A stretch of 64,000 nt of DNA from assembly GCA_020152595.1 (NCBI GenBank), contig JAIGNY010001633.1, forward strand, positions 93,501 to 157,500. The letters are read 5' to 3'. Of the stretch, positions 2,035-60,187 are shown piece by piece. Source of the DNA: Chiridota heheva (Eukaryota > Echinodermata > Holothuroidea > Apodida > Chiridotidae). Under the pieces are notes generated by a model. That model searched no databases and was not told where the DNA came from. It was given only the letters and a program-made list of their open reading frames with translations. The stretch's first letter is position 1; every line of letters begins with the position of its first letter. The translations under genes and the position numbers were made by a program.

Positions 2035-26129
<24,095 letters not shown>

Positions 26130-29714: not shown

Positions 29715-29898
29715 TCATCCATGATCAAGATCCATTAAATCTTTGCACTGACTCTCCAGGACTCCCTTGAATACATGGAAGTGATGATTAAGCTCTAATT
29801 TGGTGTGAATCTTGTACTTGCTCCCTAAGCCACCATCAGTGTATGATGTTCCATAAAATACGCGCATGATACGAGAGTGTAGTAAGGCCATAGAGCAC
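29715..29898 (-). CDS. ADAT3: ADAT3 exon 9 (terminal)
   Basis: Acceptor TTTCTGTAG. The first G completes the Met codon of PCVM and is followed by CSMALLHSRIMRVFYG, then SKYKIHTKLELNHHFHVFKG and stop TGA at 29717-29715. It holds the second Cys of the PCxxC zinc motif, so the motif is split by an intron. Confidence 0.93.
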
Positions 29899-32800
29899 CT
29901 ACAGAAAGGAAAGAAATGACACTTTGTAATGGAAATTAAGATTCAAGGATTACTGTATGGTTACAGGAAGTGAGCTGTATACACAGTAGTAAGATCAATC
30001 TCTGGCAAATACAACTTTTGCATCATTGCAAAGTGGAGCTACTTTTATTAGCTGCAGGATTTAGCATACCATTGTTATTTTATCAATAATTCCCAATAAG
30101 CTAACTGCTCAAATTTAACAAGTTTAATTTACATTTTGTGACATCACAAAGAGAAAATCTAGGAATTTCCTTATGTTAATTGATTGTTTTTAATCAGACA
30201 CCAATGTTGTTTGAATGGGAGCAGTGGAATGTGACCAAGAAGTTTTGAATCTCTACCATATTCTCAACCTGTTTAAGGATCTATCCTCATTACTTTATGC
30301 TAAGGGTAACAGATCAAAGCGACACAAGCTTCTCATTTGCATATGATCTTTTGAATTCCAGTACAACTTTTACTTATCAAATAATAAGTCAATTAAAAAC
30401 AACAAATATCAGTATAAAACTTACATAACACATGGTTCCCTTGTTACATACAACTCATAGCCTGTGCAGAGGTATGGTACATTGCTGCAATCATGTTTGT
30501 TGGATTTATCCGGCAGAACATCTGATGATGAATCTGGAGTATTAAGTGTCCTCTTTATGTGCGATGAATCTGGAGTATTAAGTGTCCTCATTATCAACGA
30601 TGAATCTGGAGTATTAAGTGTCCTCTTTATGTCTAATGAATCTGGAGTATTAAGTGTCCTCTTTATGTCCGATGAATCTGGAGTATTAACTTTCGTCTTT
30701 ATGTTCGATGAATCTGGAGTATTAAGTTTCCCCTTTATGTCCGAGGAATCTGGAGTATTAAGTGTCTTCATGTTTGATGAATCTGGAGTATCAATTGTCC
30801 TCTTTATGTCCGATGAATCTGGAGTATTAAGTGTCCTCTTTATGTCCGATGAATCTGGAATATTAAGTGTCCTCTTCATGTTTGATGAATCTGAAGTATC
30901 AATTGTCCTCTTTATGTCCGATGAATCTGGAGTATTAAGTGTCCTCTTTATGTCCGATGAATCTGGAATATTAAGTGTCCTCTTTATGTCTGATGATTCT
31001 GGAGTATTAAGTGTCCTCATTATGTCCTGCTCTTGCTGCACTACATAATTTTTCCCTCTCCAATAAAAGTCTGAAACGTCTAAGAAATCAAATTTACATT
31101 GTATCAAACTTGATATGATCATTCCCATGTATGGTAAAGTAATATGACTCAGGCGGGATCAAATGAAAACAATACTCAAAGACATTCCCAATTAGGAAAT
31201 CAAAATTATAACAAAAAATGTGTTAAGGAAAGCTTATATCTGATCTTCTCTTGAAAGCACACTCTAACTAGAAACTTAAAATATCTTGACGACCTAACAA
31301 GGGGTTTAGATAATAATAATAAGCATCAATTTATATAGCACTTTGTGCTAAGGCCTCAAAGCACTTGGCCAAGATCACAACAATAATGTTTAAATAAAAA
31401 ATGTGTTTAGAAGACGTTTAAAGGAATTAACAGATGGTGCATTGCAAATTGTAGATGGTAGATTGTTCCAGAGAAGGTGCAGTGGAGATAAAGGCCCTTT
31501 CACCATAACATTTTTGCATTCGGATGATGACTGGCAGCCAGAAGACATCTTGTTGAGGAGCGAAGCTGACGTTAAGGATGGTTTTGGGGAATTAATTGCT
31601 TAATGTATCCAGGAGCAAGAAAGTGTTGAGATTTGGAAGTAAGAGGGAGCAGCTTCTACAATGATAGCTGTTTTACTGGAAGCCAATGAAGTGATTAAGG
31701 AACTGGTGATATGTGATTATATCGGGATGAACTGGTTATGAGCCAGGCAACAGCATTCTGCACAGTCTTTGGTTTTTGAAGTGTAGAGAGTCAGGGAGGC
31801 CAAATAGAAGCGAGCTACAATAGTCAGGTCTGGGTGTAATGCAGGAACATACAAACATAGTATTTATTTCATTCGGTAAAAATTTCCTTATTCGGATGAT
31901 GTTGCGTAGAGCATAAAAAGATGATTTACAAACAGCATTAACATGTTTTTTATATCAAGGTGTGAATCCAATTTCACTCCCAAGGTTTTGACACGGAGAA
32001 GGCGTGATCTTAGTCTGTCCAAAATGAAAATAAATTTGTAGGCTTGTTGAGATAAATTGGGAACTAGCAAGGAGAATTTCTGTCTTTGATATATAACATT
32101 GTGGCAACAAACCATGAAATGTTCTCTTTTTTTGTGGAAATAATGAATATCTGTTTTTACATTTTTATTTTCCTTTTATGTCCATGAAATTTTCTCTTAA
32201 TGTAGCCGCCAAGTCATTAAAAGAACTCATGATACTCTTTTTTAAAAGAGAATTTTATCAACTGGCTATGGGGACACGCCTCTCTTGACAGAGCATTTTA
32301 TCAACTGGCTATGGGGACACGCCTCTCTTGACAGAGAATTTTATTAACTGACTATGGGGACACGCCTCTCTTGACAGCTTTTTTCAACTGGCTATAGGGA
32401 CACGCCTCTTTTGACAGCATTTTATCAACTGGCTATGGGGACACGCCTCTCTTGACAGAGCATTTTATCAACCGGCTATGGGGACACGCCTCTCTTGACA
32501 GAGCATTTTATTAACTGACTATGGGGACACGCCTCTTTTGACAGCATTTTATTAACTGGCTATGGGGACACGCCTCTCTTGACAGCATTTTATCAACCGG
32601 CTATGGGGACACGCCTCTCTTGACAGAGCATTTTATTAAGTCACTATGGGGACACGCCTCTCTTGACAGCATTTTATCAACTGGCTATGGGGATATGCCT
32701 TTCTTGACTGAGCATTTTATCAACTAACTATGGGGATACGCCTTTCTTGACTGAGCATTTTATCAACTGGCTATGGGGAGATGCCTCTCTTTACAGAGCA

Positions 32801-35800
32801 TTTTATCGACTGGCGGTGGGGACACGGCTCTCTTGACAGCATTTTATCAACTGGCTATGGGGACACGCCTCTTGACAGCTTTTTTCAACTGGCTATAGGG
32901 ACACGCCTTTCTTGACAGCATTTTATCAACTGGCTATGGGGAGATACTTCTCTTTACAGAGCATTTTATCAACTGGCTGTGGGGACACGGCTTTCTTGAG
33001 AGCATTTGTTCAACTGGCTATAGGGACACGCCTCTCTTGACAGTATTTTATCAACTGGCAATGGAGACACGTCTCTCTTGACAGCATTTTATCAACTGGC
33101 TATGGGGACACGCCTATCTTGACAGCATTTTATCAACTGGCTATGGGGACACACCTCTCTTGACAGAGCATTTTATCAACTGGCTATGGGGATACGCCTT
33201 TCTTGACTGAGCATTTTATCAACTGGCTATGGGGATATGCCTTTCTTGACTGAGCATTTTATCAACTGGCTATGGGGAGATGCCTCTCTTTACAGAGCAT
33301 TTTATCGACTGGCTGTGGGGGACACGGCTCTCTTGACACAGCATTTTATCAACTGGCTATGGGGACACGCCAAACATGTCATTACAACCAACTCACCTGC
33401 AGGAAACCAAGGCGTGAAACCCTCAGAATTATGCGATTTGGTACAAAATATTCCACTTGTATTTTTTTACATTTCTATCATTAAATATTTATGCACAGTA
33501 AAAAAGTGCTGATACCACCCAGCCTTCCATCTCCAACATTACCTGTCTTGATTTCTTTCTTAGGTTGCAGTTATACAATATACACACAATACTTGATACA
33601 GACTCTTAGTCCACCAAGTTTGTCAGCTAACAGGCAATTTTCCACTTTCAATCATTGCACTGATTTTCTCTCTTTACAATTAGAATTATTCAGTGTGTAT
33701 TAGATCGTACTACCTTTGTGTATATACAGTACAGTTTAATCAGATTGGCTTCAGGGATCTATATCATAAGCTGATGGAACTAAATGGGGGTAAATTTAAT
33801 TTACTCAGAAACCTTAAGAAAGGAAAAATGCTAAGGAGAACACATCAAAGCCTCCTTTCAACCTTCACTTATTTTTAATGATTTTTAAGAATAGTTTCAT
33901 TGATGAAATATTTCTTTTCATAAAGTAGGAAAGGTAGGCAACCACCTCTGACACCAATGATGTACTACCCCAAAATGGGCCCTCCCTCCTTTCTATGGAC
34001 CATTACTTACCACTTATATCCCATGCTCCACCACCTTGACTTCTTGCAACTAGATCAATGCAAACCATTACCGCATGATGAAGGGGATTGTTACTATGGT
34101 TACATAAGTCATAACAGGATGCAATTATTTCATTTGTGGCTGGATTCACTATTACAGCACCAACTGGAGACTGAAAGAAGATAATGAAAATTCAGAACGA
34201 TATTAGACAGCAAACTTTGATTTCGAGAACAAAATGGTGACGCAAATATTCAAAAATTTCACTTCAATAAAGAGACATTTGAGTTTCAAACTGTGACTGT
34301 CAGCAGACTACAAGCCATGTCACGCACCCAGATTCCTCAGAAGTCTTTGTGTATTCAATATTTTGTAGTTTAAAATCAATAGTAAAATTTCTGACTTTCC
34401 GAAAGCACAAAAGACCCTACGCTTTCATTATCCTTACATATTTTGCATACAGGAAAAGTATTCCAGTATTGATCAATCATTATTTCACATTTTGAAAAGA
34501 TTTTGTAAAATGTAAAGATATAAAATCTATTCATTTGTTCCTTCTTCTTTCCATTACTTTTCATATAACAATATGAAAGTATATTCTGATCCTTTCCCAG
34601 ACAATTTTGCATAATTTGAGAAACACATAGAGAAATATCCATGGCAACTAACAATGCAATACCCATGTACGTTCTAATCCCATATACAAAATATGGGTAT
34701 CAAAATATCTTTATAGTGTGACAGAACTAAACTTACCATATTTCTTTTCTTCCCCTCTATTGCAGCTTCCACAGCCAATTTCATGTTACTATGGATTCTC
34801 AAAAGGTCATCTTTGCTGAAGAATGTTCCACTTAAAAGCTTTTCTAATCTGTGAAGTAGAGCAGATTATACTTTCATACAAATGTTTAGCCTTTGAAATT
34901 ATAACAATAAGGGTAATGCATTGCAGCAAAGGAAATGGGACTTGGAGCACCAAGATTGCCCACTTGAGCATATTTTACTTTACTGGTTGCACACTTGGTT
35001 CCCACTCAAGAAGGTGGTTCATTAACAGGGCCTCTAACACACTTTTGATATTAGGGGTCAAGACCAGTGTGGAAAAGCCCTGTAAGGGAAAGGAAAGTTT
35101 TTCTGGTTGAATGCACAAATATGAATGCTTTGAAAAACATTGCCTTAACCCCATGGACGCTGTCAAAGTTGAAATAAATAGGAGCAAAATAAACTCTTTT
35201 TTTTTTAATTGAATTTTTTTCAAATAACAACTTTGTAGGAATAATTAATGTAATGATGTCTGCATTGTTCTTGACTATAGCAAAAACATTCCAATAACAG
35301 CTCTACCCATATGACACCAGACGCCAACAAGAGCTCTACCCATATGACACCAGACGTCAACAAGAGCTCTACCCATATGACACCAGACGTCAACAAGAGC
35401 TCTACCCATATGACACCAGACGCCAACAAGAGCTCTACCCATATGACACCAGACGTCAACAAGAGCTCTACCCATATGACACCAGACGCCAACAAGAGCT
35501 CTACCCATATGACACCAGACGTCAACAAGAGCTCTACCCATATGACACCAGACGTCAACAAGAGCTCTACCCATATGACACCAGACGCCAACAAGAGCTC
35601 TACCCATATGACACCAGACGTCAACAAGAGCTCTACCCATATGACACCAGACGTCAACAAGAGCTCTACCCATATGACACCAGACGCCAACAAGAGCTCT
35701 AACCATATGACACCAGACGTCAACAAAAGCTCTACCCATATGACACCAGACGTCAACAAAAGCTCTACTTACATGACACCAGATGTCAACAAGAGCTCTA

Positions 35801-38796
35801 CCCATATGACACCAGACGCCAACAAGAGCTCTAGCCATATGACACCAGACGTCAACAAGAGCTCTACCCATATGACACCAGACGTCAACAAAAGCTCTAC
35901 TTACATGACACCAGATGTCAACAAGAGCTCTACCCATATGACATCAGACGTCAACAAGAGCTCTACCCACATGACACCAGCATCAACAGACCTATAGTCT
36001 CCTAGATGTCAAATTAGAACAAAGGCACAGTACAGCATAAAGATCTTACTCTTTATCTTCATGGAATGCAGTAGGCCAATACTTGACAGCATCATCATAT
36101 TGTTGCCTAGAAACAGGCAATTTCTCTGCAGCTTGTGTACAAAATGGTGGCCCTAGACCGGTTGTGTTGAAGCTGGGTGACTTACTGAATACCTGAGAGA
36201 GTTCTAGTGCAGACTCCTGAAACTCCAACTGTTCAAGCTGGCACAGAATAATTTGCAGGTTGTTACCTATTGAAAGCAAAACAAAGTGCAAACAAAACTG
36301 AAAGTTATCAATGAATGTGTTATGACCTTAATGTGTGAGATTGTAGTAACAGCAAACCACAGGGTGTGTCGTTCTCTGCTCACCTTAATGTGTGAGATTG
36401 TAGTCACACTGAAAAGTTTCTCTTTGAGCCTATCCACACCCGACACCCGAGTTAATCCTGAAAACTTAGGCATAGCAATTACCAACCCAACTTCCTCTTC
36501 AGTGTATTGTTTCCACTCCAAACAATGAGTGTGTATATGCCATTCCCATGCACACCAGTGTCTTAGTGGGAGAAATTTGCTTGCAAACTGGTGATAAAAT
36601 AGTTGTGTATTATATGTCGGAGGTGATGCGTACAATACCTGTGTATGATTGACGGACCATTTCTCCTAAGGAAAGATATCGCTTTAAGGTAACAGCAAGG
36701 TGTGTCCTTACCTTTTCTTCTTACTCTCTTGAGATGAGTCAGTCTCTTTAAAGGTAACAATGTTCTCAATTCTCTGTAAAATAAAGAAAATAATCAATGT
36801 AAAATTTCTCTCATGTTTTAACCCTTAGAGACCCCAGGGGCTTGAACTTTTTTCATATAAATTTTTCACAACTTTCCTTTCATTTTCTTTCAGTACAAGT
36901 TTGGATGTAACCAAAGCTAAGATATTGGTCTTTTGAGTATTGAAAGCAAAATTAGTCAAACTTGGATAAATATATGCAAATTAAGCAATATTTGGCTAAA
37001 TTTGGTCAACAAATGGGCCAATCTTTGCGCAAGTTTAATTTCGTTTGAATATTGAAAACAAAACAAAAGTTTTGTGTGACACATTTACTGTAAATTCTTT
37101 CTCAAATTTCCATTTCAATGATGCTAATCTACAATTTTTATCTACAAGGGAAAAATGAGAAAACACTACAAATAATTTTAGCCAAATGGCCCCTGAAAAC
37201 CACAACAGAAAAATGAGTGCAGTAGTCTCACCAGTGACTAGAACCTAATGTGCTCGCGTGAAGTACGCTTTGTTAACCACTACACTATGTAGTCATTATT
37301 TACTCAAAGGTGAAATTGAATTCTTATAGCTTTGAGTCAATATAGAGAGGGCATGCCTTTATCTATATATCAAACATTTTTAGCAGATTCAAGCGGAGGT
37401 TCACGAACGAAACTGTCTTATTTTAACGACTGGGTTCCACAGCTACAGGCCGTGCTACAAAGTCAAACAATAATTATACAAGCGCAAAAATGAACAAGGA
37501 ACGAGCACGGACAAGGGTAGCCAAAAGCCACACGAATAAACAAAACCTGACAACAGCCAGGGAACACAAGTAAACGTGAACACAAAGGAGTCGTTTCAGA
37601 GCCACCCCACCCCAGGAAAACTACAGATGGTAACTATAAATAAACACCATACCAACAATTCCCAGGGTGGAAGATAGGAATAACACCAAATAGAATAAAA
37701 TATAAGAAAAAATGACTAGGCTAGGCCAAGGGAAACTAAATAAGAGTCACCGAAAACGGGCGTTTAAACGCTAAGCTCAATGAAATTCGAGAGGATCAAG
37801 TGTTCTTCAAAAATGCAGGTTTTTATAAAGTGAATATCAGTTTCTGAGCGGTTTTTACAGTAATTTTTAAGAAGTGAATCAATCCGTGATTGAACGCTGG
37901 GAAGGGAGTGAAGATCAATAAGTACAACTGGTGAAACCCAACGAGGTATGTGAAAAACAATTTTTAAGAGCATTAATTTGAATTTGCTCTAATTTACAAC
38001 GGCTACTTTTGGAGAGTAGAGGGAAAACAATAAATGAGTAATCAATGAGTGAGCGAATAAGACTAGTGTATAAAATTAAGATTGTAGACAGTGGAGCTCT
38101 TGGATTATAAGCTGTCCCACAAACAGTAAATAATTGGGAAGTGCGGATTTTTAGCTCCTTAATTAAACATTCAAAATGCGGCTTAAAATTAAATCTGGTA
38201 TCAAACGTGATGCCCGAGAACTTAACTGAATTATAGTTTGGAATTACGGTATCGTTAAAAACTAAGATCGGGATTGAAACAGGACAGCGGCGAGAGAAAA
38301 CAATAGATTGTGATTTAGAAGGGTTAAGGAATAATCTCCATTTGCTGCACCAGCATTGAAGTAGGTTAATATAGTATTGCAAGTCGTCCCTTGCGGCAAG
38401 AATATTATTGGCCGACGACCAGACAGCCAAGTCGTCTGCATATTTACCCCGCTAAGCGTAGCGGGGATATTTACGAGAGTTATACTTACCTTCCATGCTA
38501 TAATATGCAATCTGGTCACACGACCTGATTCTAACGCACTTCTAACCGAACCTAAAAAACGCAGTAACCAGCCAAGCCCTGACCTCCATAATACCTCTGT
38601 ACCACCTCACTCAACATTCCACCGAGGCCTGAACGAGAGGGGAGGCGGGCGGGATGCATGGAAGGTAAGTATAACTCGTGAAATATCCCCGCTACGCTTA
38701 GCGGGTAAATTTACTTCAAGTTATACCTTACCTTCCATGCTATAATATGCAATCAGATTGCAACCGAGGATAGGAAGGAAGGGAGTTCAGATCGCA

Positions 38797-41800: not shown

Positions 41801-44800
41801 CTATGACCAAGCAGCTTCCTAGCTAGCTTAACTCAACTTCGGGGTTCATCGACAGTGTACGTTATCCCGCTGCAAAAACCCGGTCGCACAGGCCCGTGCA
41901 CGGTCAGAGAAGCGTTTGCACGCTATGCAAAGCGGGACCTCTGAGGTGCGTAACGCATCGACGCACGGAGGCCTGTCCTCCGTGCCTACGATACTGGTGA
42001 AAGTAATTGCGGAAATGTAACGCTCAACGCGGATAATCGTATAAATGGTGTTCACATGATCGTGGAACTGCGTAGCTAATGGCCACGGAACCATGAATAG
42101 AATAGCTCTCACGGGCGCTATACTACTTGTGAAGATTATCACTTGTCACCTGGCCACATAGCTCGTAGCTAGCGGGTGCATATCCGGGTAAATCGTGACG
42201 TGTACGATATCCCGTTACAAAACTACGGAGCCGTAAGCATCCGAACACCGAGCCACGCGCTCCTCGGTCGCACCTTGAAAAATACCGTCGCGGTGGAGTC
42301 TGTGCTCCGACCACGCCGCTGGAACCCAATCGCTGCAAAGAGTACCACGAATGGACTCGCAGCATAATCTGCACGCCGTAACGCGCGTGAGATGGATGTG
42401 ACCGAGCGTAAAGCAAAGAAGCGTTATCACGCTATGCCGGTCATCAAGGGTGTGTAGAGCATCGACGCCCGAGGACGTGTCCTCCATGTCCATGATACTG
42501 GTGAAAATAATTACGGAACGGTAATGTTCAACGAGACAATCTTAATTTGCGTTCACACGAAGTCGTGGAACTGCGTAGCTAATGGCTACGGGACCAAGAA
42601 GAAAATAGCTGTCCTGATGCTATACTTCTTGTAAAGAAAGTCATCTGTCACCTGACCACGTGAGCGTAGTAGCTAGTGGGCGATAACCGGGTGAACCGCA
42701 CAGTGTACGTTATCCCATTAGAGATAAGTTCCGCTCACTGGAGCCGCCCAATGGAAGCGAAAGGACCCGTGAAAACGCGACCGTGGACTCGTATGGAACC
42801 GCACGGACCAGTAAATACGGGCCGCGGAACCGCCCAATGGAACCGCACGGACCCGTGAAACACGGACGTGGAACCGCACGGACCCGTAAACATGGGCCGT
42901 GGAACCGATAACTGTCGTAGCCGTTGGCTACGGACCAAGAAGAAAAATAGCTGTCTCAATGCTATACTTCCGATGAACCGCACGTGTACGTCTTTCAAGA
43001 GGCGCCCGCCAGGAGTGGGCGGCGCCCCGCCTCCCTGGCTTTGGACCTGGGTGGCGGTGGGGAGACGAAGAGGGCCTCTCAGACCGCCGCTTCTCCACTT
43101 TCTCCGCCGCTCTTTGAAAGTACCGGTCGCGGTGGAGTCTGTGCTCCGACCACGCCGCTAGATCCCAATCGCTGCAAAGAGTACGGGATTTGACTCGCAG
43201 CATAATCTGCACGCAGAACACGTGAGATGGATGTCACCGAGCGTAATTTAAAGAAGCGTTTGCACGCCACGCATCACGAGACATCCTGGGTGTGTAAAAA
43301 CATCGACACTCGGGACCTGTCCTTCATGTCCATGATACTGGTGAAAATAAATACGGAACTTGTAACGCTCAACGAGACAGTCTTAATTGCGCTCACACGA
43401 GCCGTGGAACTGCGAGCTAATGGCTACAGGACCAAGAAGAAAAATAACTGTCAATGCTATACTTCTTGTCAAGAATGTCACCTGTCACCTGACCACGAGC
43501 TAGTGGGCGATAATCGATTAAACCGCACGATGTAACGTGAACCCGTTAAATACGGACCCGTGTAAACACGGGGGTCGCGAATGGAACTCAGAATAACGGG
43601 CCCGATGGAAGGAACCGGGCCGCGGAACCGCCCGTAACAACAGGCCGCGGAACCGTATGGATCACGGAACCGCCCAATGGAACCGCCCGCCCGCAGAATA
43701 ACGGGCCGCGGAATCCGTATGGACCACGGAACCGCCCGCCCCGAATAACGGGCCGCGGAACCGTATGGATCCCGGAACCGTATGGATCCGCCCCGAACCG
43801 CACAATGCCCGCACATAGGGCTGCGGAACCGTCAGGGATGGTCCAACGGAACCGTATGGAACCCGCCAGAACAACGGGCCGCTGGAACCGCACGGGACCG
43901 CCCAATGGAACCGCCCGCCCGTAATAACGGGCCGCTGGAACCGTATGGAACCGCCCGCCCGTAACAACGGGCCGCTGGAACCGTATGGAACCGCCCGCCC
44001 GTAATAACGGGCCGCGGAACCGTATGGAACCGCCCAATGGAACCGCCCGCCCGTAACAACGGGCCGCGGAACCGTATGGAACCGTCCAATGGAACCGCCC
44101 GCCCGAATAACGGGCCGCGGAACCGCATGGAACCGCCCAATGGAACCGTTCGCCCGAATAACGGGCCGCTGGAACCGTATGGAACCGCCCAATGGAACGT
44201 TCGCCCGTGAACAACGGGCCGCGGAACCGTATGGAACCGCCCAATGGAAATGGAACCGCCCAATGGAACTGCGTTCGCCCGAATAACGGGCCGCGGAACC
44301 GTATGGAACCGCCCAATGGAACGTTCGCCCCGTAACAACGGGCCGCTGAACCGTATGGAACCGCCCAATGGAACCGCCGTAACAACGGGCCGCGGAACCG
44401 TATGGAACCGCCCAATGGAACGTTCGCCCGTAACAACGGGCCGCGGAACCTTATGGACTCACGGAACCGCCCAATGGAACCGTTCGCCCGTAACTTTTTA
44501 CGGGCCGCGGAACCGTATGGACTCCCGAACCTTATGGAACTGTCCCTGAACTCACAACAACCGGCGCCAGCGCGTTACAAGGGTTGTGGAGTCGACAGGG
44601 ACTGTCCAAAGGAACCGCTTGGAACCGTGTTTACAACTTAGGCGACGCTCGTTAACGCCCCTAAGAGGTCTCTCTCTCTCTCTCACTTACCTTACGGAAC
44701 CGCCCAATGGAACCGTTCGCCCCGTAACTTTTACGGGCCGCGGAACCGTATGGACTCCCGAACCTTATGGAACTGTCCCTGAACTCACAACAACCGGCGC

Positions 44801-47800
44801 TCAGCGCGTTACAAGGGTTGTGGAGTCGACAGGGACTGTCCAAAGGAACCGTTTGGAACCGTGTTTACAACTTAGGCGACGTTCGTTAACGCCCCTAAGA
44901 GGATATCTCTCTCTCTCTTATCGTTACCGCTCTAGGCGCAACGCCTCTAAGAGCGTAACCTTCTCAGTGAATCTCTTTTATATATCTGAAAAGAGAAGAA
45001 CATATATCCATGCGTACATACACAAATACGGCAAAGTAAGTATGAACTTACGGACACGCTAAAGAGAGACGAGGCCTAGCAGTCTAAACAGAACACCAAA
45101 ACTCTCTTAAACAGAAAAAATTTTACTGAAAAATAAATTTCTTAAGAGAAGAACGTAAGTCCAAGCGCATAAACCTAAACACGGCAAAGTAACTATGATC
45201 TTACGGACACGCTAAAGAGAGACGAGGCATAGCATTCTAAACAGAACAACAACACTTGCTTTAACAGAAAAAAATTTAAAACCAGAAAATTTTCTATCTG
45301 AAAAACTTTAGAAACCCGAGAAAACGATCCAACGTAATGACTTTACTAGCGCCGGGTAGCGTGGGAAACACCAACCACTGTGTACTTGAGGTCTGTAAAG
45401 ATAAAAAGGAAAGATTATTTTCCTGTAATTAGGTCGTCGGAGAGACCCACCCACGGTCCTCCGACACCCCAAGTTCAATCCTGAAAATTAAATATCTTAT
45501 CTCCAAACTGTGTGAGAAAAATAAAAATATTCATATGCTGTTAACGTGAAAACGAAAATAAGCTCGCTAGTAACAACTGTAGCTCCCTAGAGTTGTTACA
45601 GGGCGACCCCACATTTACCCAGCGGTGACTAAGACCCAATGCGCATGCGCCAAAATCGAAAAAGGAAATTGGCCTAATGCATACGAGAAGGTGTACTGAA
45701 ATATCCTAACGTGTTAAACACTATACATAGTATAACGCTAGGGTCACCTCGAGGCGGGTGGGGCTAAGGGAGAAAAAGACTAATTCCCGGGCGAGAGGTC
45801 CCCAGACAGGCACAACCTGTGCTCTAGGACCTAAAACACCCACCACGAGAGTAGGACGCTCGTAACAGCCACTCGCTATGTACGAATGGAGACAAAAACC
45901 CGCTATCCTAAGTGTAGGCTACACGGGTAAAGTCGTAGGTCGGCCAAGAAATCTCGACCCATGGCTATCTCACCCTTCTCTCGAAGACTTGAAAAGGCGA
46001 GCCAGATGAGAACGGGCAGCGTAAAACCCTTCAGGTAGAAGCTGCCAAGAGAAAAGAGTTAGAAAGGTTAATTAAAAATAAAATAAAAGTGACCAGTTTT
46101 CAGCGATGTTGTGAAACAAACGCGCTGAAAAAGAGTGAGGTGGTACAGAGGTATTATGGAGGTCAGGGCTTGGCTGGTTACTGCGTTTTTTAGGTTCGGT
46201 TAGAAGTGCGTTAGAATCAGGTCGTGTGACCAGATTGCATATTATAGCATGGAAGGTAAGGTATAACTTGAAGTAAATTGAGAGATATAAATGTAATCAG
46301 AAGATGGGTTAGGAATGTCGTTTACAAAAATCAAAAAAAGTAGTGGACTAAGAGGGCTACCCTGAGGGGTGCCCTTATTCACAATCAAAGGATCAGAAAA
46401 AACATTATTAACTTTAAATCGAATTTGCCTGTTGAATAAAAAGTCTGCAATTAAGCGAATAAATTTAACCGGGAGGGAGATCTTATTTAGTTTATAAAGA
46501 AGACCATTACGCCATAACTTGTCGAAAGCCTTTCGGCATCGAAAAAGGCAGTAAACACACAATGTTTTTTACAAGGGTTTAAAGCAATATGATGAGACAA
46601 CTTGGCTATCTGGTCTGTGGTACTGAATTTTGAACGGAAACCAGCTTGAAAATTATTAAAGAAATTTATATCATTAAGATAAGTGGTAAGCCTAGAACAG
46701 ATGACCCTCTCGAGAAGTTTACTGAGAACTGAAGAAAGTGTAATAGGTCTGTAATTTTTCGGTTTTAAATGATCTTTTCCCGGCTTAGGTATAAGGATAA
46801 CATGCCCCGATTTCCACTTTATAGGAAAAATACCAAATTTAAAACAAATACTGTAAAGTTGACAAAGAAAAGATTTAAATTTTACAGAACTTTTTAATAT
46901 GAAGGTAGGTGACTTCATTCCCCCCAGGGGCCGTCTGTTTAGTATTTTTAAGAGCTTTTTCGAGAACTGAAACAGAATTAAGTAAATGATGTTTGTCACC
47001 TCTCTCGCACTTAAACTTTGAATAGAGGTTTGAAAGATTCTTTTTTCTGACAAAATTATTAATATAGTTAAAATGATCATCATCAACGAAATTATCAGAG
47101 CAGCCTGTGGAGAGGACAGGGTCAAAATACAATCGAAAACACTTGCATCTCTCGAATTCAGTAGAGTAGGTAAAGTTATTATAATATAACGGAGTAGAGT
47201 TATTTTTAAATTTAGATTTATTTAGAAGGTTGTTAATACTTTTCCAGAAATGACGACTGTCAGATTTATGGTCCAGTTTAATACATTAATTATAAAGAGT
47301 CTGATTTTTGAAGAGTTTAATTTCAGTACTAATTTTTCTACGAATTACATTAATATTATGTTTAAGTAAGGGGCACTTATTTTTATTATAATTTCTGCGT
47401 AAACGCCTGCGAAATTTGATTAAATGTATAATATACTGAGGTAAAATGGTATGCTTCCTAGTATTGCCAACGAAAGACTTAATTGGAATGAACTTGGAAC
47501 TGGCCGAGATAATTGAGGAAGTAATAAAAGAAACCAAAGTGTCAAGCGTGCCAATATCAAAAGATTTACAACCTAAATTATCTATACTTGAATCCAGAGC
47601 TGAAGAGAAACCTAACCAGTTAGCTTGAGTAAAATCAGGGTAGTCGGTCGAAACTGTAACAACGTTTTTACAATTGAGACTACAAGTAATTGGTAAATGG
47701 TCACTATCGAGACCAGGTCCAACCTGAAAAAACGAAAAGTGAATGTAAAGACTATTACTAAGTAAACATAAATCTAAGATGCAGGGTTTACAAGTTGTGT

Positions 47801-50800
47801 TAACTGAAAAAAAGTAGGGGTTATATCATAAATGAGTTTAATGTTGTTATTTAATATAAAGTCAACAATATCGTTGCCCTTGGGGGAATCATAGGAATCC
47901 CACCAAAGAGAGTGTTTAGCATTAAAATCGCCAATAATAATGAAGGAACTATGATTTGCGATACGTCTGTTTATCTGATTAGAGAGGAGGTTCAATGAAG
48001 CATTGGTGATGTAGGGTTTTGGTACAGTGATTTTGTTTTAAAATATTGTCAAAAATGGCAACATTTGAAGAAATTTCCCCAGACAAAAAAAGATTGCAGA
48101 TAGGTATAATAAAAATTTGAACAGAAATTAATACTATCATGTCTTAGGACTTGTGTGTTGGATTTTGAAACAAAAATGTTATTTTGGAGTTTGGTGAGTT
48201 TCAAAATATAAAAAACAAAATATTTGTTAATTTGTTTGCATTTTTTATAATTTTCTGTATTTCAACCCATTTTTTCTCAAAATCTTTAAAATAACCCCCA
48301 TCAAAAAATGTAATTTTCTGAAAGAACTATTCAAGTTATTTCAAATGACACCAGGATAACATTTATATTACGTTGCTAAGGTACCTAAATAATATTTTTA
48401 AAACGCATGTCCAGAAATTCTTGACAAGAACGGGTGGGCCTTTGGGTTGAGATACTTGTTTATTTCAACGAAGAATTCACCTCTATTTAAGTATTTTGCT
48501 TTGTCTTTTACTACTACACACTAGCAACACATTGTAGGCTTATTAATTGTCAACACCTTTGCGGTTCTGCATCTATTTTACCTTTTTAAAATTATATCTC
48601 TTTTACACTTATGCTCATCTAGAACTGCTTATTGCTTGAAAATTGCACATACATAATTTATTAAAAATTCTTCACTTTTGTAACATATCAACGACTTATG
48701 GAATGAAAAAATGTTAATTTGAAATGGATGTACTCAAGATTGTCACCAATAAAAAAAAAAAATGGGTGATGGTCAAGGAAGGAATGCCCCCACTTGCAAC
48801 ATGCACAAAAAGGGTGATGGGGACTTTAAACCAGTTTGGTGCCCCATCATTGGCTGCACCAGGGTAATGGGGATTTTAAACCAGTTTGATGCCATCTTGT
48901 CCCATCATTGGCTGTATCAGGGTGATGGGGACTTTGAACCAGTTTGGTGCCATGTTGTCCCATCATTGGCTGCACCAGGGTGATCGGGACTTTAAACCAG
49001 TTTGCTGCCATGTCCCATCATTGGCTGCACCAGGGTGATGGGGACTTTAAACCAGTTTGGTGCCATGTTGTTCAATCATTGGCTGCACCTGGGTGATGGG
49101 GTCTTTAAACCAGTTTGGTGCTATGTTGTCCCATCATTGGCTGCACCAGGGTGATGGGGATTTTAAACCAGTATAGGTTTGGGTGAACACTTAACATCAT
49201 TGTAAAGCACTTTGTTGAGGCTGTGCATGGGAAAAGCACTATTTAAGCACCAAACATTATTATTGCTACAAGGTTCATTACTGGTCAAAGGCTGTTAATC
49301 AGATCAATAACGTTGCTTGCTGCATGGCCAGAAATTAGAAATAGTTGACACTGATCAAAACAGCAACTACAAATTATATTACCAAGATACTCCGTGAAAA
49401 GGTTTCACACATCCCAACAATCCCAACCCCAATTACAAAATCTACCTCAAAAAAATGTCACATAAGGGTACAACAAAAGAGTTGGCCACAAAGTTCTAAA
49501 AGTGCAAAGTGATCAGATGAGTATACTTTACCTAATAAGACGAGATGTTTCTCTTTTATCTATAACTTCAGCAGCTACCACTTGCACTTGAAAAAGAAAA
49601 GAAAAAGTAGGATTTTATTTATACAATATATACAAAAAGGTTAGAATTACCCATTGATTCATACATTATAATTTATACAAAACAGCTCATAACTTTTCTT
49701 AGAAGCATAGTTTTCGTTCAAACATCTCATGAATTCATTATTCTCCCTACTGCCAATGCAGTTTTTGCTTGTTGGGAAAATATATTTTCCAGCACATGGG
49801 TATGGTCAAATTTACCCCTGCCCCTCCACATTAATACAAAGGGATGCATGGCCTCATTAACATGAACTTTGTGTGTGAACCCAATTTTTTTGTCTTTGGA
49901 CAAAATATAATTTCTCACAACGAGGTGGGGTCAAATTGACCGAGTCACTCATAAAACTTTAATAATTGGCTGGAAAAGATAAGAATTACCCATTGACCCA
50001 CACATTATACTTTATACAAAAGTTCATAACTTTTGTTAGAAGCATACTTTTTTGTTCAAACATCCCCATGAATTCATTTTTCTCCCCACTGCTTTTCAGT
50101 TTTTGTTTGTTGGGAAAATATATTTTTCAGCACGTGGTATGGTCAAATTGACCCCCTCCCCCACCCCCTCCCCTCCTTCTCCCTCCCTCATGCCGTTTAC
50201 CGAAGATGTACTAATTTGTGCTACATATCAATAATCTTCAAAATAATATTTTATGTCTCACTCACATCCCTGATACTGTATTTGCATGTGTTAACTAACA
50301 CAACTATCATGGGTTCCGTTACACATGTCTATTCCAACTCCCTGCCCACACAGTACATACGATATGATACGTATTACAGCCTTACTTGGTTTAGAATTTC
50401 AACACGTGCACAGCAGCCTTCTGACTGTTATTCATTTCTTGTTTCTCTTGCAAGCATATTATGACCACAAAAAAAAAGGTTTATAAGAAGTCCAATTTCA
50501 AGCAAGAAATTTGCCTTTCAGTTTTATTGACAAAAATGTTGGAACAGTGAAATTTGATCCAGAACAGTTTTCTTTAAAGAATTTAACCCCTGTGAACACA
50601 GAATGAGAGCACAGTAAGAAATTGTCCTGTTTGGCTCATGAATGGTCCTTATCAATCAGAATAGTTTCATTCTGAGGTATGATCATAGCTAAAATCCCAG
50701 AGGGCCAGGGGCTTAAGCCTTAAGATGGGGTTCTGCAACCTACACAAAAAAGGCACAGCGCTTCGCCATGAACTTCTAACTCCATGGCTTCGCTTGATGT

Positions 50801-53800
50801 GCACTAATGTTCCCATCAAAAAAACTAGCACCCTGGCCCTTTTGAAATCAAGCTATGGGTCTGAGATTTCCTCCGTTTTGATCCTTTTCAACACGTAAAC
50901 CTATTTCTTAGCAACAGCCAGCCAATATGATTTTTTTAAATAATCTGTTACTGAAATTCTATAGAATCTTAAAATATTCAGTAATCTAAGAATGCTTATG
51001 CAAGTAATACTGTCATGAATAGAAACTGAAGTTGATTTTTTGCCCTAGAATTTGAGAGTGATAGATAGAGTGTGGCATAGCATAAGGGACGTAATACTTC
51101 ATCTGTTGATGTGCTCTAGGTCCAAAAGGGAGGTCTTTTTTTGCACAGTTGGCAGAATTTTGAAACAACATGTCTAATTTCTACTGCCGAAATTTACTGT
51201 TCAAGTTTTCATAAGAAATGATTATAATTCATTTGAACATTAGTATCAAAGGTTTTTAGTGCTATTACATGCACGGAAAGTGCATTCAAAATATTCTTGA
51301 GACTCAATCAAAATCCCCCCTCCCTTACTTTTCTGCCACCAGCTCCTTTATCATATACTCCTTCTTACCAATTGATATGGAATCTGCTATTGCATCTGAT
51401 GGTACAAAGGCAGGGTGAAGAAGATCTGTGAGATAAGATGAAAAGAAGTAGGTTTATTAATAATATTCCAATAATTTGAATAAATTTCTCATGTAGGGCA
51501 TAAATCCCCATAAGAAAAAAAATATTAGCTTATCACCCTCACACACATCAGTATTGAGAGAATGCCAGATTTGCTACATATATTTTTTAGTACCATAGGG
51601 TGTCTGTACTTTCTTTCTTTCCACCTTAATGTGATAAACTAATACATTTTTTAGGGAGCCTGATAAGAAATATTGTCAGTGTTAAATTCAGTATACTTGG
51701 CAAGACAATTACCAACTTCCATTTCACTTAAATGACATTGATGGCAAAGTTTGATGGTCAGTTATTAGAGTGCCTAAACAATACATACAGCATATGGTAT
51801 GGATACCTGTGTGGAGAAAACTGAACCAATGACCAATCACATCAACAGCATTTAGAGAGGAATCAAGTTAATGGCACAAACCTTGAATCGGTACTCTAAG
51901 CACCTGGGTGCAATTGTCTCCAATAAAGGTGCCAACCTAAATACTAAGCTTACTGAATGCTATCAGCCAACAACAAAACATTTTTATTATACATTTAGAA
52001 ATCACAAATCAATATTTTGTTTGTATGACGAAGGCTTAATGGCACCATGACTGTCAGCGAGGGTAAAATTGTGCCTGAGAGGTTAGATCATTCCAGAGGT
52101 AGGAAAAAAAAAAAAGAGGAGTCTGAGATACTGTAAGTATGGGGATTAAAAGCCAGGAAGCTAAAATCAAGAGAGGAAGTGAAGGGGTGCTAAAAAAGGC
52201 AAAAGTAGGTAGAGGGGGTGGAAGAGGGGGACTAGTTATGATTATAGAGGGAGACACAATGAAGCAAGGAGATAATTTAATCTGGAGGGTTTTTCTGGAA
52301 GAGCTCGGCTATGGCATTGTGAGGGGTGAGGGAAGCTCTGGGAAGGTTGTACAGGGGGCAAGGAGGATGTGGTGGTTTGTGAGGGGGCAATGGCAATTGT
52401 TGCAGAGGGGTGGGGGAGTAACCAGTAAGGAGATGGGAGCTTGGTAGGGAATTTCCCAAGGTTATTTGAGCATTTAGGTCACTAAATGTAAATGTACCAC
52501 CCTAATTTTCAGGCAATTTATAGAAATAAATATAATTTAGGAAGTTTACCTTTAAAGTACAAAAAGTAAAAGATTATTTTCGGCATCATCTGCCTAAATG
52601 TGGAAATTCCCAACCAAAATTCTAAAATTTCCTACCAAAATTCTGAAATCCCTATCAAAAAATTTTGAAAGGGAATTTCCCTCACAAAAATCCAAAGTTA
52701 GTGCAAACCCTGGAGAAAGGAGTGTGAGGACCAAATGTGGTTGAGGATGGTGAGTAGGGTAATGGTGGCCAAATTAGGGAGGTGTTTCAGGAACTGGTAG
52801 GAATGTTATCTGGGCCCTTGAAGGTACAGCCAGCATCGTGGATGGCTTGGGTTTATTCAGAAAGGATGAGAGGGGTGTTGTAGCTCTCAGTCTTGTCGGA
52901 GGGAAAGGTGATACTCCAGGCTTCATCGCGAGCTTGTTTGGCTTTGAAAGCATTGGAGTAGTTGGCCGAGGACGAGATGTTGTTGAAATAGGCAGGGAGG
53001 TGATTAACAATGTCCTGTTTCGCTGTGAGAAGGTTACCATTCCAGGAGAGATGGGAGACTTGCCCGCCCTGCCATGGAAGCTGTTAACCATTCTCCAAAT
53101 CTTCTTAGTGGGGGTGTTGGTGGTGAGAGAAGAGATGAAGTTAAGACACCGACAAGATGTGATATCCTAGACCTCATGATTACGAACCATCCTCAGCAAG
53201 CTAACAGAACCAATGTTATTCAAGGTATACTGTAAGTGATCAAAATGAAACCTACACCGAATTGGATATTGCACCGTGTCGTAAGGAACAACATCCACGG
53301 ATGATCCTTCTATATAACAAAACAGACTGGCCTGGACTGAAGAAGCAAACACTCAGCATAGCAAATGAGATTACCAAAAAGGAGACCACTCCCATTACTA
53401 AGAAACTATGGCACATCTTCAGGGATGGCCTAATTAAAGGCATCCACTCATTTATTCCTCCCAAAAAATCAAGAAGAAACTCCAACCCTTGGATTAGCAT
53501 CGATCTGAAAAGAAAAATACTCTGACATAACAAGGCTTTTATTATGAGCAAACATCACAGCAGACTTGCTGATGAAATGAAATTGCAAAAACTCAAAAAA
53601 GATGTACAGAAAGACCTAAGGAAGTCTTACTGGCAATACATAGAGGAGACTGTCACCCCTACAGATTCCCACCTTAACAATATCTCCTGTATGAAAACTT
53701 TGGAAATTCAAACACAAGCGATCTGACTTCAGCTCTATCCCCCATTGAGAGTGGCAGGGAAAGTACTTACCGGCTCAAGGGACAAAGCAAAGGCCCTTAA

Positions 53801-56800
53801 TGAGCAGTTCCATTCTGTATTACTCGTGAGGTAAACTTTAGGCCAGATGACAAACCATATACATTTCTACTCATGCCTGACATCAACATTACAGTACCTG
53901 GTGTGTTAAAATTCCTTTTAATCTCCAACCCAGCAAAGCCCCTGGTCCTGACAAGATCAGCCCACGAATTTTGAAAGAGATTGCTGCCACTATTGCCACA
54001 CCACTTTATGCTTATTATCAGGAAGTCTTACAGAGAAGCGGAGTACCAACTGACTGGAAACATGCAAATGTTGCCCCAATATTTAAAAAAGGTCACAGAT
54101 ACGAACCCGCAAATTACAGACCAATCAGCCTTGCCTGCATATTATCACAGTTCATGGAGCATAGTATCTGTAGCAACATGATGCAACACGCGGGAAGACA
54201 CAGTATATTCTGCAGCATGGTTTCAGAAGCAAGCATTCATGTGAGACCCAGCTAATCTAATTTGTCCATGATATTATGTATGTACTGTATACTAAGACTT
54301 TACAAAAGCTTTTGAGAAAGTCGGTCACATAAGACTAGTTGAAAAACTGAAATGCTACAGTATTAGGCCATGAGAATGAAAGTTTTTGATTTGCATCCAA
54401 ACATTTTTCAAAAGGCTTGAGGCTTTTTTCCATTATCTATTTCTAGTATGAAGCTTCTTCCACGATGTAATAAATTGCAGTCTAGAGTCAAGAATGCATG
54501 CATCGAAGGTTTCCATGTGTGAAGATCGAAGCTGTTGGCAGCAACTGTATGCACTGTTTGATGGAACTTGAATTTTTGTGATAGAGAACTTTTTTTTCAT
54601 AATAATGAACTTTGTTTTGAATACTGAACTTTTTCGGCAGGAAGTTTTGGAGCATGCGGGCAGTGAATTATAAAACTTTCATTCTCATAGCCTTATGAAA
54701 TTAAATTTTGCAATGATTTTTTTTTCAATTTTGCAGGAATCCAAGGATCCCTATGCATCATCTCCAGTGTGGCCTATACTAGGATGCATCATTTCCAGTG
54801 TGGCCTATACTAGGATGCATCATCTCCAGTGTGGCCTATACTAGGATGCATCATCTCCAGTGTGGCCTATACTAGGATGCATCATCTCCAGTGTGGCCTA
54901 TACTAGGATGCATCATCTCCAGTGTGGCCTATACTAGGATGCATCATCTCCAGTGTGGCCTATACTAGGATGCATCATCTCCAGTGTGGCCTATACTAGG
55001 ATGCATCATCTCCAGTGTGGCCTATACTAGGATGCATCATCTCCAGTGTGGCCTATACTAGGATGCATCATCTCCAGTGTGGCCTATACTAGGATTTTTA
55101 TATTTATTATTATAGACATAAAAATGAAATAAGTCCTTCATAAGTGAAAAACCCACATTCTAATTTCTAATGTTAGTCTCCTGCTGAACATTTAATTATG
55201 TTCTTGGAAACAAGAGTTCCAAAGAACATACTGTAATCTTACCAAGGATCCAGTCACATGACTGCATTCTTAGGTCAAGCATATCTTGAGTTTGCTACCA
55301 GTAATACAGTCAAATTTGATGTACAATATTAGCATTTATTTGAGAATGTGGAGAGTATTTAAACGTAGTATACGGTATGCAGTACCGCTAGCATTCACGG
55401 CTAGTGCACTATAGAACACAACTACAGTCAGCTTAGACAGAAGCACTGCAGCTACTGTACAGCAATTCGTGATAGAAAGAAGTTAAAACCTAACGTGACT
55501 TCAAACTACAGTACATAACAGTAAAACTATAATTTACAAATAGGGAAGAAACAAATGAGATGAACATCATAAATTAAAAGTATTGTAGCATAGAATTAAA
55601 GTTTTCAAATGTTTTTAAAGGAATCATTTAGACTGATTTTAATACAAGCTGAGAAGAAAATTGTATCATCCTTTTATTCGAATTTGGTTTGTACATAAAA
55701 CAGATGGTTTGGTTTGATGAGGTTTAACAGCACTGCGACAGTCAGAATTAAACGTGCCAAGAGGGTGTTAAATAGTTAAGGTACAGAGGTTAGGGAAGAG
55801 ATGAGTGGAAAAGAAAGGAGGGAGAGAAGTGAAAATTTAAGAAATAAGTTGTACAAAAGGTGGTAAGGAGGAGAGAGGGAGAGGGATGTATAATGTTATT
55901 ATCATTATAATTATTCTTGTATATTTCAGTACAAATTTAAAACATTTGTAAAATGGAAAAAGTACATGCATATACATATTAAAACACATAGCAGAAAATA
56001 AAAGAATATGAATAAATGAATAAGGAGACAAATTTAAGATAAAAGGTTCAAAACAGTAATTCTAACTCTCCTGTCTGTAAGTAAATTGCTGCACTGTAAA
56101 TGAATGAATTTTTGTAGACGTTTATTCTGTATTTTGGAAATATGTTAGGGTTTCGAAGGTTTCTGTTTGAACGTACTAGATGACTTTGTAATGTATTGTG
56201 TAAAGAATGGTTTTGTTCTTTGTTGATTTTTGTCGCCATTGCAATGAAGTCCGATTTCGCCCTGTCATTTAAAATTTCAATAAACATGGGATAATGTAGG
56301 TTAGGAATCTTTGAGGTATACTTTAAAAAATTTCCTGATTCTGTCTTTGTCTTTCTGTAAGATTAAATGATACCAAACTGGTACAGCATAAAGAGCCTGT
56401 GATAAAATAACTGATTTAGAAAGATTAACTCTAGCATTAAGATTACAAAAAGATAAAATGTATAATAAACTCGAAACAATATAGTAAACTTTACTTAAAA
56501 ATTTTAGACACATGATGGGAAAAAGTCAGTTTATTATCAATACATACACCAAGATAATCAGTTTTTACACATTTTGCAACCTCTGAACCTTGAATAAATA
56601 TGTTGTCTGATTTTGATTTCAAAAGCCCTGTATGTTTGACGTTTTTGGTTACAAAGCACATTTCCTTTGATTTCTTTGGGTTCAGCAACAAGTTCTTTTC
56701 ATCACATTTTGACACAGACTCATCAACAAATGACTGGTACTCTACTTGATCCTCATTTACAGAATTTTTAGCAATTTTACATGAAATAGCAGTGTCATCA

Positions 56801-57895: not shown

Positions 57896-59081
57896 TTGTC
57901 TTAAACTGTCGAATGCTCCCACAAGGTAAAATATATTTGGCCCCTGGTATCACGCCCAAGAACACAGTGCCAGTAATTACGATTTTCGTAACCACATTTT
58001 TAGTTTTCAGGCTAAGGCCTATGCCTATGCCTAAGAAGAAAAATTGATAGTCTTTGGAAGTTAAAGTTTGAAGTTTCGGGTACTGTCGCAATGGTATTGA
58101 GTTGCTAATTCAGGCCTTACAACTCTGCAGTCATTCCCGGCCTAATGAAATTTTGGAATTGTCGCGGAACTACTGTAATAATTGCTGGGCAGTACGTCCA
58201 ATGTTTAATTTTAAAATTGAGTTGACTTGCCTTCTGATTTCACCCGCTTTCTGCTCTCCATACTGTCAATGTTGTGGAAAAATGTATGTATCGCGCCGAT
58301 GAATCGATCAGAGATCTAATTCCCTGAGGCTAGAACATCAATGGTATAGTAGCTCAACATATATTTTGGCAAAGGAAAGAAATAGCCTACATGTTTGATG
58401 TTTATTTTATTTTAGGGCCTAGGGAAGTGCGAGCGGGAGCTCTATAACGTTGTGATCATTGGCGCCGTCACGTGTGGGCATAGGGGACATGGCAATGTTT
58501 AAAACGCCAAAAAATATATTTTGTACAAAATGGCTAGTTTTGACAATTTTTAAGCGCCACTGGTTGTGATGATAGAACATCAATGATGTAGTAGCTTATT
58601 ATATGTTTTGGGGTGGGTATAAGTCTGGTTGCGAAATCGCTGCAGAGGCCAAAATTCCCACTGCCCCCAGGCATGCCATAACTCTCAAAATGCCCCACTG
58701 CGTATTGGAGCTTAAATATCGTTTGAAAATATGAAAACTGTTTTTCAAGTAAGCCTAAGAAACTTAAGCCACAACTGTAATATGATGTAAATCTTATTTA
58801 CAATCATGTTTGCTTGGAGCGAAATTGAAATCATAACCAGACAATCTAACAGCAAAATACTGCTTTATAAAATCAAGATGAATTTTGCATCCTTACAACA
58901 AGACCTGATTTTAATTATGATGAATTTACTCATACTGTAATTGGCTAATATATTGGCAAATAAGAGCAAATAATTAATTAGCACAAATTAACGAAGCACA
59001 ATTAATTAATGATAGCATCCCACAGATACACCAATCATTATAACAAATTATTACTAAGAAGATTTCAAAGAATAATTTCAG
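57896..59081. other. Upstream flank of ADAT3
   Basis: About 1.2 kb of unique sequence that should hold the ADAT3 5'UTR and promoter. A GC-richer patch at 58410-58500 (GAGCGGGAGCTC, GGCGCCGTCACGTG) is the only CpG cluster nearby and a possible promoter or E-box-bearing site. No upstream gene is recognised. Confidence 0.3.
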
Positions 59082-59577
59082 GGTCAAGCAAGTATATCTT
59101 ATATGAAAGAGGACTTCAAAACAAACAAAATAGTGACAAAAGCATTCAAAAATCTTATTTCGTTACGGAGATATCTAAGTTTAAAGGTTGGTATCATTTG
59201 TGTAGAAACGACTGAAATCAGACTAGTTGTGATGTCATAGCCTCAGATTTCTCAAATTCTTTGTATATTCTATCATATTTTGGTCTGCCATTTTATGGCT
59301 TAAAAATAATGGGATATGTTAAAAAGTAGTAAAACTGAATTAATAATATACCGCCTGAAGAAGAAAGATAATATAGTGACAAATGAATACATTGAAATGC
59401 ATTAAGAATTGTTAAGAATGTGAGGATGCATACGCCAACTTAAACTTACTACACCAACCAGTCATGATAAGAGCTTTAACTTGAATATCTCCTTAGCGGA
59501 ATAAGATTTTTTAACGCCTACTTCACCATTTCGTTTCTTTTGAAGTTCTCTTTCATATAAGATGGATATGCTTGACC
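59082..59577. mobile_element. Foldback/MITE element, about 496 bp
   Basis: The left arm 59082-59197 and right arm 59464-59577 are imperfect reverse complements over about 110 bp (GGTCAAGCA..., CTTATATGAAAGAG, AATCTTATT, CGGAGATAT). The 266-bp centre is shared with a copy at 25610-25790. Target duplication not identified. Confidence 0.75.
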
Positions 59578-60177
59578 ACTAAACTTATCCTTTAACAATC
59601 TCCACTGGGAAAATTTGCTAAGCAACACAGCTCATTTCTGAAAAAGCTTCACAGTGTTTCCTCTGGCAGGAGCATATTCCTAACAAAAATCTTTAAAACC
59701 TCAAGGTATATTTAAAACCAGTCCGTCGGCTGGGACGCCATAATTGTTTGTATCAAATAACATCTTGTAAAATTTGATTCGAAATAAAATTCCCTTTTTT
59801 TTAATGATCGATCTATAAGTAGTTTAAATGGTCGATGGGACGCTGAATCTTAAACCATCGTGAAACAAATAACAAGAAACTTATAACTTCAATATCTGAA
59901 TGAATACCAATCGATTATGAATTGATAAATCGGCAGAGGTAAGGAGAAAAAGAAAGGGTATTAAGTATATTACATTGATCAAAGTTTAATTCTCAAAACT
60001 TGAAAATATAGGCCTATGGTATGGTTTAGTGATATAATGATTTTACAGAGGCAAAATCGTCACATAGTCACAAAGTTTTAAACTCCATTTAAATTCAGTT
60101 GATTGGATGAAATTTCAACTAAGTTGCTGCACGATTCGTTGACCTTATTTCACGGTATACATTAAATAAAATGCCAA
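59578..60177. other. No feature seen
   Basis: AT-rich unique sequence of 600 bp between the foldback element and the tRNA-like sequence. Confidence 0.35.
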
Positions 60178-60187
60178 ACTTCAATAA

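What the first reader, a model, noticed from the sequence alone, without database searches (positions are those of the whole stretch)
30517..31025. A minisatellite has expanded inside the coding sequence of ADAT3
Seen: exon 8 encodes about 14 copies of a 12-residue unit (RTLNTPDSSDIK type). All length changes are multiples of 3, with no stop, and intact ADAT3 exons and splice phases lie on both sides. Known: in ADAT3 the segment between HAV and PYLCTGY is a variable linker in a protein that must assemble with ADAT2. Inference: the minisatellite expansion that fills this window's introns also hit an essential gene and was tolerated or used as a disordered, phosphorylatable insert of about 170 residues.
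Basis: partly seen in the sequence, partly recalled or inferred. Interest (0 to 1): 0.85.

Follow-up and report, generated by a model that had tools for sequence, protein, structure and literature searches.

The report
Repeat array inside ADAT3 exon
In what is probably an echinoderm, the gene for one subunit of an essential tRNA-editing enzyme carries fourteen copies of a 36-letter DNA repeat inside an exon, adding about 166 residues to a variable loop of the protein, and unrelated repeats sit in the same loop in a scallop and a soft-coral-like protein.

Summary
Confirmed: 14 tandem units of 36 bp (12 residues, RTLNTPDSSDIK type; minus strand, 31017-30520) lie in one open exon (31079-30425) of an ADAT3 gene. 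Seven exons join in phase with AG/GT borders. The exon's first residues (DVSDFYWR) match relatives; of 269 AG sites between the neighbouring exon and this exon's end, this one fits best by far. So the array is best read as coding.

It sits in the 'ADAT3-specific loop', poorly conserved and deleted from mouse ADAT3 for crystallisation, though that deletion lowers activity. Without the array the loop would have ordinary length (58 residues; median of those measured 48).

New here: unrelated repeats occupy this loop in Pecten (10 residues) and an octocoral-like protein (20), with a two-copy repeat in Branchiostoma; none that strong was found elsewhere in 186 ADAT3 proteins. Near relatives that I could read lack them, so the gains look independent.

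Variation between units looks neutral; lack of stops and frameshifts is weak evidence. Best reading: a coding minisatellite tolerated in a disordered loop. Phosphorylation or regulation is untested. No RNA data could be had, and in-frame splicing past the array is not excluded. A known kind in a new place, apparently recurrent.

The parts
30520..31017 (-). Array: 13 full units of 36 bp (unit 7: 33 bp) and a 9-codon end unit, coding for 166 residues
30425..31079 (-). ADAT3 exon F, 655 bp, holds the array; starts DVSDFYWRGKNYVVQQEQDIM, ends PYLCTGYELYVTREPCVM (last codon completed by exon G)
   Evidence: splice phases; homology of its first residues
30763..30975 (-). Two copies of a three-unit block (units 2-4 and 5-7), differing by 1 base and a 3-base loss: turnover within the array
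34011..34170 (-). ADAT3 exon E (HAV motif, HAVMVCIDLVARSQGGGAWDIS), ends in phase 1
29715..29898 (-). ADAT3 exon G (CSMALLHSRIMRVFYG ... stop)
34737..34848 (-). ADAT3 exon D
36050..36266 (-). ADAT3 exon C
36712..36773 (-). ADAT3 exon B (weak single matches, E 0.003 to 0.98; supported by order and phase)
49532..49586 (-). ADAT3 exon A (weak single matches, E 0.014 to 0.55; supported by order and phase)
30522..30523 (-). In-phase AG just after the last full unit: a possible acceptor that would skip the array

Best explanation
A minisatellite has grown by tandem duplication inside the coding part of ADAT3, in the variable ADAT3-specific loop that joins the HAV helix to the PYLCTGY strand of the inactive deaminase domain. 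The 36-bp unit has no stop in this frame and adds 12 residues per copy, so copies can be gained or lost without breaking the frame. The loop stands out from a folded core, so about 166 extra residues are borne as a long flexible chain, probably near the ADAT2 active site. Shown: array, exon, splice phases, place in the loop, variation between units that looks neutral, repeats in the same loop in other phyla. Inferred: that mRNA keeps the array, that the chain is disordered in this protein, that its effect on tRNA editing is small.
For: Seven exons in phase with AG/GT borders and an intact reading frame of 480 residues. First residues of the exon fit relatives; this acceptor scores 26.7, the next best of 269 AGs 4.7. 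Only two GT inside the array, so an intron removing just the array has almost no donor. Loop without the array 58 residues, against a median of 48. Same loop deleted from mouse ADAT3 without losing the complex (PMC8216470). Other ADAT3 proteins with repeats in this loop: P0069, P0144 and, two copies, P0023; 3 of 186 in the loop, 0 of 186 before it and 0 of 186 after it at the same score. AlphaFold2 of P0069: folded core, loop 284-434 almost all under 50 without secondary structure. Distinct codon variants between units 15 nonsynonymous to 2 synonymous, as random change would give (p 0.27).
Against: No RNA or protein evidence from this organism. The exon's acceptor is pyrimidine-poor (9 of 15; the site at 30522 has 10 of 15) and each unit offers an in-phase AG. 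The mouse loop is not inert: deleting it lowered deamination. The array exon folded alone gave a strand per unit, at mean confidence 45. Stops and frameshifts are absent no more than chance allows.
Confidence: 0.68

Rival explanations
1. The array is left out or trimmed in most transcripts: exon E is joined to an in-phase AG inside or just after the array (for example the one at 30522), which gives a loop of normal length. The long form is rare or absent.
For: Exon E ends in phase 1 and the CCAG|AT of the units is in the same phase; AG at 30522 is in phase and has a pyrimidine count (10 of 15) no worse than the full-exon acceptor (9 of 15); 25 of the 269 AGs leave the frame open to the end of exon F.
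Against: It would lose the segment DVSDFYWR, which relatives keep. The pyrimidine tracts inside the units have no long run (7-8 of 15).
Confidence: 0.12
2. The insert is used: the repeats act as a phosphorylated or binding segment that regulates ADAT, and are kept by selection.
For: 11 [ST]P motifs and many Ser, Thr and Asp; the two hydrophobic positions stay hydrophobic in all 13 full units; the mouse loop affects activity.
Against: 15 nonsynonymous to 2 synonymous distinct variants, no sign of constraint; only one [ST]xx[DE] motif and net charge 0; repeats of other lineages have unrelated units (window against Pecten 57 of 500 shuffles as good, window against octocoral-like 356 of 500).
Confidence: 0.12
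3. This locus is a decaying or second copy of ADAT3, or the array is swollen by the assembly, and the working gene lacks the array.
For: The own genome could not be searched, so copy number is unknown; the exon with the start codon was not found.
Against: Seven exons open, in phase, with intact borders; HAV and PCVMC kept, and both Pfam domains above their cut-offs.
Confidence: 0.05

Closest known systems
ADAT3-specific loop of mouse ADAT3 (PMC8216470; PDB 7NZ7)
   Same: Same place between the HAV helix and the (P)Y-C-TGY strand; poorly conserved; absent from ADAT2 and TadA
   Different: No tandem repeat is described there in the passages I read; far shorter; shown to affect activity, which is untested here
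Coding minisatellites / tandem repeats of disordered regions (PMC12457776, outline and two sections read; PMC1273636, search listing only)
   Same: In-frame tandem units in a long internal exon (655 bp), in a region expected to be disordered
   Different: Copy-number variation between individuals is not shown here; the host is a tRNA-editing enzyme subunit and a 166-residue array is large
Repeats in the same ADAT3 loop: P0144 (Pecten maximus), P0069 (unnamed source, groups with octocorals), P0023 (Branchiostoma, two copies)
   Same: Tandem repeat in the same loop
   Different: Units of 10, 20 and 11 residues, not alike beyond chance where tested; fewer copies

Membership tests
ADAT3 / Tad3 | Deaminase domain related to ADAT3 proteins | tested here: met
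   PF00383 6e-16 and PF14437 2.7e-11; mouse ADAT3 best solved match, E 1.5e-44; best hits named ADAT3-like
ADAT3 / Tad3 | HAV in place of the catalytic HAE, with PCxMC zinc ligands | tested here: met
   HAVMV and PCVMC in the spliced protein; 0 of 198 fetched homologues match the pattern H[AP]EM
ADAT3 / Tad3 | ADAT3 N-terminal domain | tested here: inconclusive
   Exon C and, weakly, A and B match relatives; the start exon was not found
Coding minisatellite | Tandem units inside an exon, in frame | tested here: met
Coding minisatellite | Present in mature mRNA and protein | not testable with these tools
   No transcripts or peptides of this organism at hand
Coding minisatellite | Copy number varies between individuals | not testable with these tools
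   One haplotype only; block duplication within the array shows past turnover
ADAT3-specific loop | Lies between the HAV helix and the PYLCTGY strand | tested here: met
   alignment A1 and loop measurement
ADAT3-specific loop | Disordered | tested here: inconclusive
   Predicted for the relative P0069; the window's exon alone gave a low-confidence model with strands

The most novel reading that the evidence does not exclude
The ADAT3-specific loop is a recurrent site of tandem-repeat growth in invertebrates, and its changing length near the ADAT2 active site tunes which tRNAs are edited and how fast. Coding minisatellites would then act as adjustable dials on the I34 tRNA pool and so on decoding.
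Probability: 0.12. Interest if true: 0.75.

Novelty: new member of a known kind. Interest (0 to 1): 0.42.

Why it matters
It suggests that one subunit of an essential tRNA-editing complex can bear about 166 repeat residues in a loop whose removal in mouse lowers activity. The recurrence in several phyla gives natural length variants with which to ask what that loop does, a question that the structural paper left open. It is also a clear case of minisatellite growth reaching an exon and apparently being borne there, with the likely filters in view: period divisible by three, open frame, poorly conserved loop.

Tried and rejected
Own genome: the genome search did not complete in seven tries of the same request, so copy number and genome-wide array content are unknown.

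First coding exon: a scan of 49587-64000, minus strand, against eight segments of relatives gave no convincing match (best mean score 8.5). It may lie outside the window or have diverged.

I34 feedback idea: the array has more codons that I34 tRNAs could read than the rest (84 of 166 against 104 of 315, the stop codon included), but NNC/NNT codons are not enriched (29 of 166 against 59 of 315), so the excess lies in NNA codons, and repeat codons are not independent. Dropped.

Shared motif between phyla: window and Pecten units both hold TP...DIK, but 57 of 500 shuffles score as high. Dropped.

Fold of the repeat: the array exon folded alone gave a strand per unit at mean confidence 45. Treated as uninformative; no fold search was run.

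Unit elsewhere in the window: best match outside the array 11 bp. No tRNA and no Rfam match at the gathering score.

Species: the tree puts the window ADAT3 beside Apostichopus and an unnamed protein (92/93, not a starred branch), but I had no row named as sea urchin or crinoid, so 'sea cucumber' is a guess.

Full report
1. The observation. TRF reports a 36-bp unit repeated 14.0 times at 30527-31027 with 87% matches. On the minus strand the array runs from 31017 to 30520 and reads without a stop as 13 full units and a 9-codon end unit, 166 residues. Unit 7 lacks one codon; the other 12 full units are 36 bp. The 13 full units are on average 88.8% alike. Units 2-4 and 5-7 are copies of one block, differing by one base and the 3-base loss, so the array has turned over since its units diverged.

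2. The gene. tblastn with eight animal ADAT3 proteins finds their counterparts on the minus strand between about 49,600 and 29,730, besides a few weak matches elsewhere. Seven exons (A 49586-49532, B 36773-36712, C 36266-36050, D 34848-34737, E 34170-34011, F 31079-30425, G 29898-29715) join in phase, with AG before and GT after each as far as it applies, and give 480 residues ending in a stop. Pfam finds PF00383 and PF14437 above their cut-offs. Mouse ADAT3 is the best solved match, E 1.5e-44 (query without most of the array). Exons A and B rest on weak single matches (E 0.014 to 0.55 and 0.003 to 0.98) and on order and phase.

3. Is the array coding? Openness is not the argument. The array is open on both strands; 4 of the 16 other arrays that I listed are open in some frame, 2 of them with ten or more copies; and as many substitutions as seen here would leave no stop with probability 0.33-0.69. 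The argument is the context. The exon begins with DVSDFYWR, which aligns without a gap to NTPGFYWK (Apostichopus), DTPGFWWR (P0001) and GHSNFYWK (Amphiura); sea stars and some others are less alike there. Scored against those three, the acceptor before this exon gets 26.7 and the next best of 269 AGs 4.7. From there the frame is open through the array to PYLCTGYELYVTREPCV and a GTAAGT donor. GT occurs only twice inside the array, so an intron that removes only the array has almost no donor.

4. What could still undo this. Exon E ends in phase 1, and the CCAG|AT of the units is in that same phase; a further in-phase AG lies at 30522, just after the array. A transcript that skips the array would stay in frame and have a loop of normal length, at the cost of the FYW segment. 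The full-exon acceptor is itself pyrimidine-poor, 9 of 15 bases, against 11 to 15 in the gene's other exons (for A, B and D counted one or two bases off the border) and 10 at the site at 30522. Only RNA can decide. I give this rival 0.12.

5. Where it sits. The array lies between the HAV helix and the PYLCTGY strand. That segment is the 'ADAT3-specific loop' of Ramos-Morales et al. 2021 (PMC8216470; [quoted passage not shown] Its deletion lowered deamination, notably of tRNA-Val and tRNA-Arg, changed binding slightly in either direction, and impeded neuronal migration in their assay. So the loop can be removed and the complex still forms, but it is not inert. The trypanosome complex uses flexible, eukaryote-acquired segments for tRNA contacts (PMC9643335, passages read); those are not this loop.

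6. Other ADAT3 proteins. Three searches listed the best 120 hits each (of 515, 516 and 1,327 found): 198 distinct proteins, mostly vertebrates by the names given. The loop could be measured in 187 of 199 rows, the window included: median 48, window 223, next 189, 157, 147, 146. Without the array the window loop would be 58. Tandem repeats stand out in the window (period 12), P0069 (20) and P0144, Pecten maximus (10), with a two-copy repeat (period 11) in P0023, Branchiostoma. As a control, 3 of 186 proteins (window not counted, 12 unmeasured ones dropped) reach a self-similarity score of 55 in the loop, 0 of 186 in the part before it (40,566 residues) and 0 of 186 in the part after it (14,653 residues), though the loops total only 8,249 residues. 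The cut of 55 was set after seeing the scores; the highest outside the loop was 40. P0069 groups with Dendronephthya (P0121) and P0122 at 100/100; these two were among the 12 unmeasured rows and, read by eye, show no such repeat. Nor do the window's nearest relatives P0001 and P0002. The gains therefore look separate. The set is no random sample: P0144 came in through a search with P0069.

7. Structure. AlphaFold2 of P0069 with an alignment of 40 gives a core mostly above 90 and a loop, residues 284-434, almost all below 50 and without secondary structure, as expected of a disordered insert. The window's array exon alone, without an alignment, gave mean 45 and a strand per unit; I draw nothing from it, but it does not support disorder.

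8. Constraint inside the array. Over the 13 full units there are 15 distinct nonsynonymous and 2 synonymous codon variants (22 and 4 if every copy is counted); about 26% synonymous is expected of random change (p 0.27 for the distinct ones). Constraint on amino acids is thus not detectable, though numbers are small and copies not independent. The two hydrophobic positions stay hydrophobic in all 13 full units, which chance could give. The chain has net charge 0, 11 [ST]P motifs and one [ST]xx[DE] motif. Phosphorylation is possible but unsupported.

9. Origin. Seventeen arrays that I picked from the 65 TRF rows, this one included, hold 14,586 bases, 23% of the window, with periods of 20-58 bp. 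The exon unit has no relative among them beyond 11 bp. So this region is prone to forming minisatellites, and one in an exon could persist because its period is a multiple of 3, the frame is open and the place is a poorly conserved loop (inference). This follows the general pattern of Homma et al. 2025 (PMC12457776; outline and sections 3 and 9 read): tandem repeats favour long internal exons and mostly encode disordered regions.

10. Organism. The tree of 35 rows places the window ADAT3 beside Apostichopus and P0001 (92/93, not starred); it is 59% identical to Apostichopus over 275 columns. I had no row named as sea urchin or crinoid. Echinoderm is likely, sea cucumber possible.

11. Verdict. 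A real in-frame minisatellite in an ADAT3 exon, very probably coding, in a loop that bears change. The kind is known. The place and its recurrence I did not find described: in the held library, searches for ADAT3 with 'tandem repeat' (8 papers), 'minisatellite' (0) and 'echinoderm' (3) showed no such report, judged from the listings alone.

Noticed in passing
window, arrays listed (for example 2147-4152, 5984-7373, 12355-13516, 21128-22959, 32247-33371): Minisatellites with unrelated units and periods of 20-58 bp make up about 23% of the window (17 arrays picked from 65 TRF rows), many of them in introns of ADAT3.
   Followed up: partly
P0144 (Pecten maximus), P0069 (unnamed source), P0023 (Branchiostoma), loop before PYLCTGY: Tandem repeats of other sequence and length in the same ADAT3 loop; their DNA could not be examined here.
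   Followed up: partly
21128-22959 and 24426-25393: Two separate 45-bp arrays about 1.5 kb apart whose units look alike (GATCAAATCxTGTGTTCTAGCTTCTCTTCT...), as if one array had been split or copied.
   Followed up: no
23484-23831, plus strand: Open stretch of 116 residues ([19 protein letters not shown]...) that looks like an exon of a neighbouring gene on the other strand; no Pfam match at 0.01.
   Followed up: partly
37918-38451, 46245-48037 and 56494-56934, minus strand: Fragments of reverse transcriptase (the first below Pfam's cut-off) and, at 47777-48037, an endonuclease domain: remains of non-LTR type retroelements, the first two within the long intron between exons A and B.
   Followed up: partly
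43600-44920: Dense G+C-rich repeat of nested units (ATGGAACCGCCC...) inside the long intron, different in make-up from the other arrays.
   Followed up: no
7412-7636: Perfect or near-perfect AT dinucleotide run of about 112 copies directly after the 5984-7373 array.
   Followed up: no
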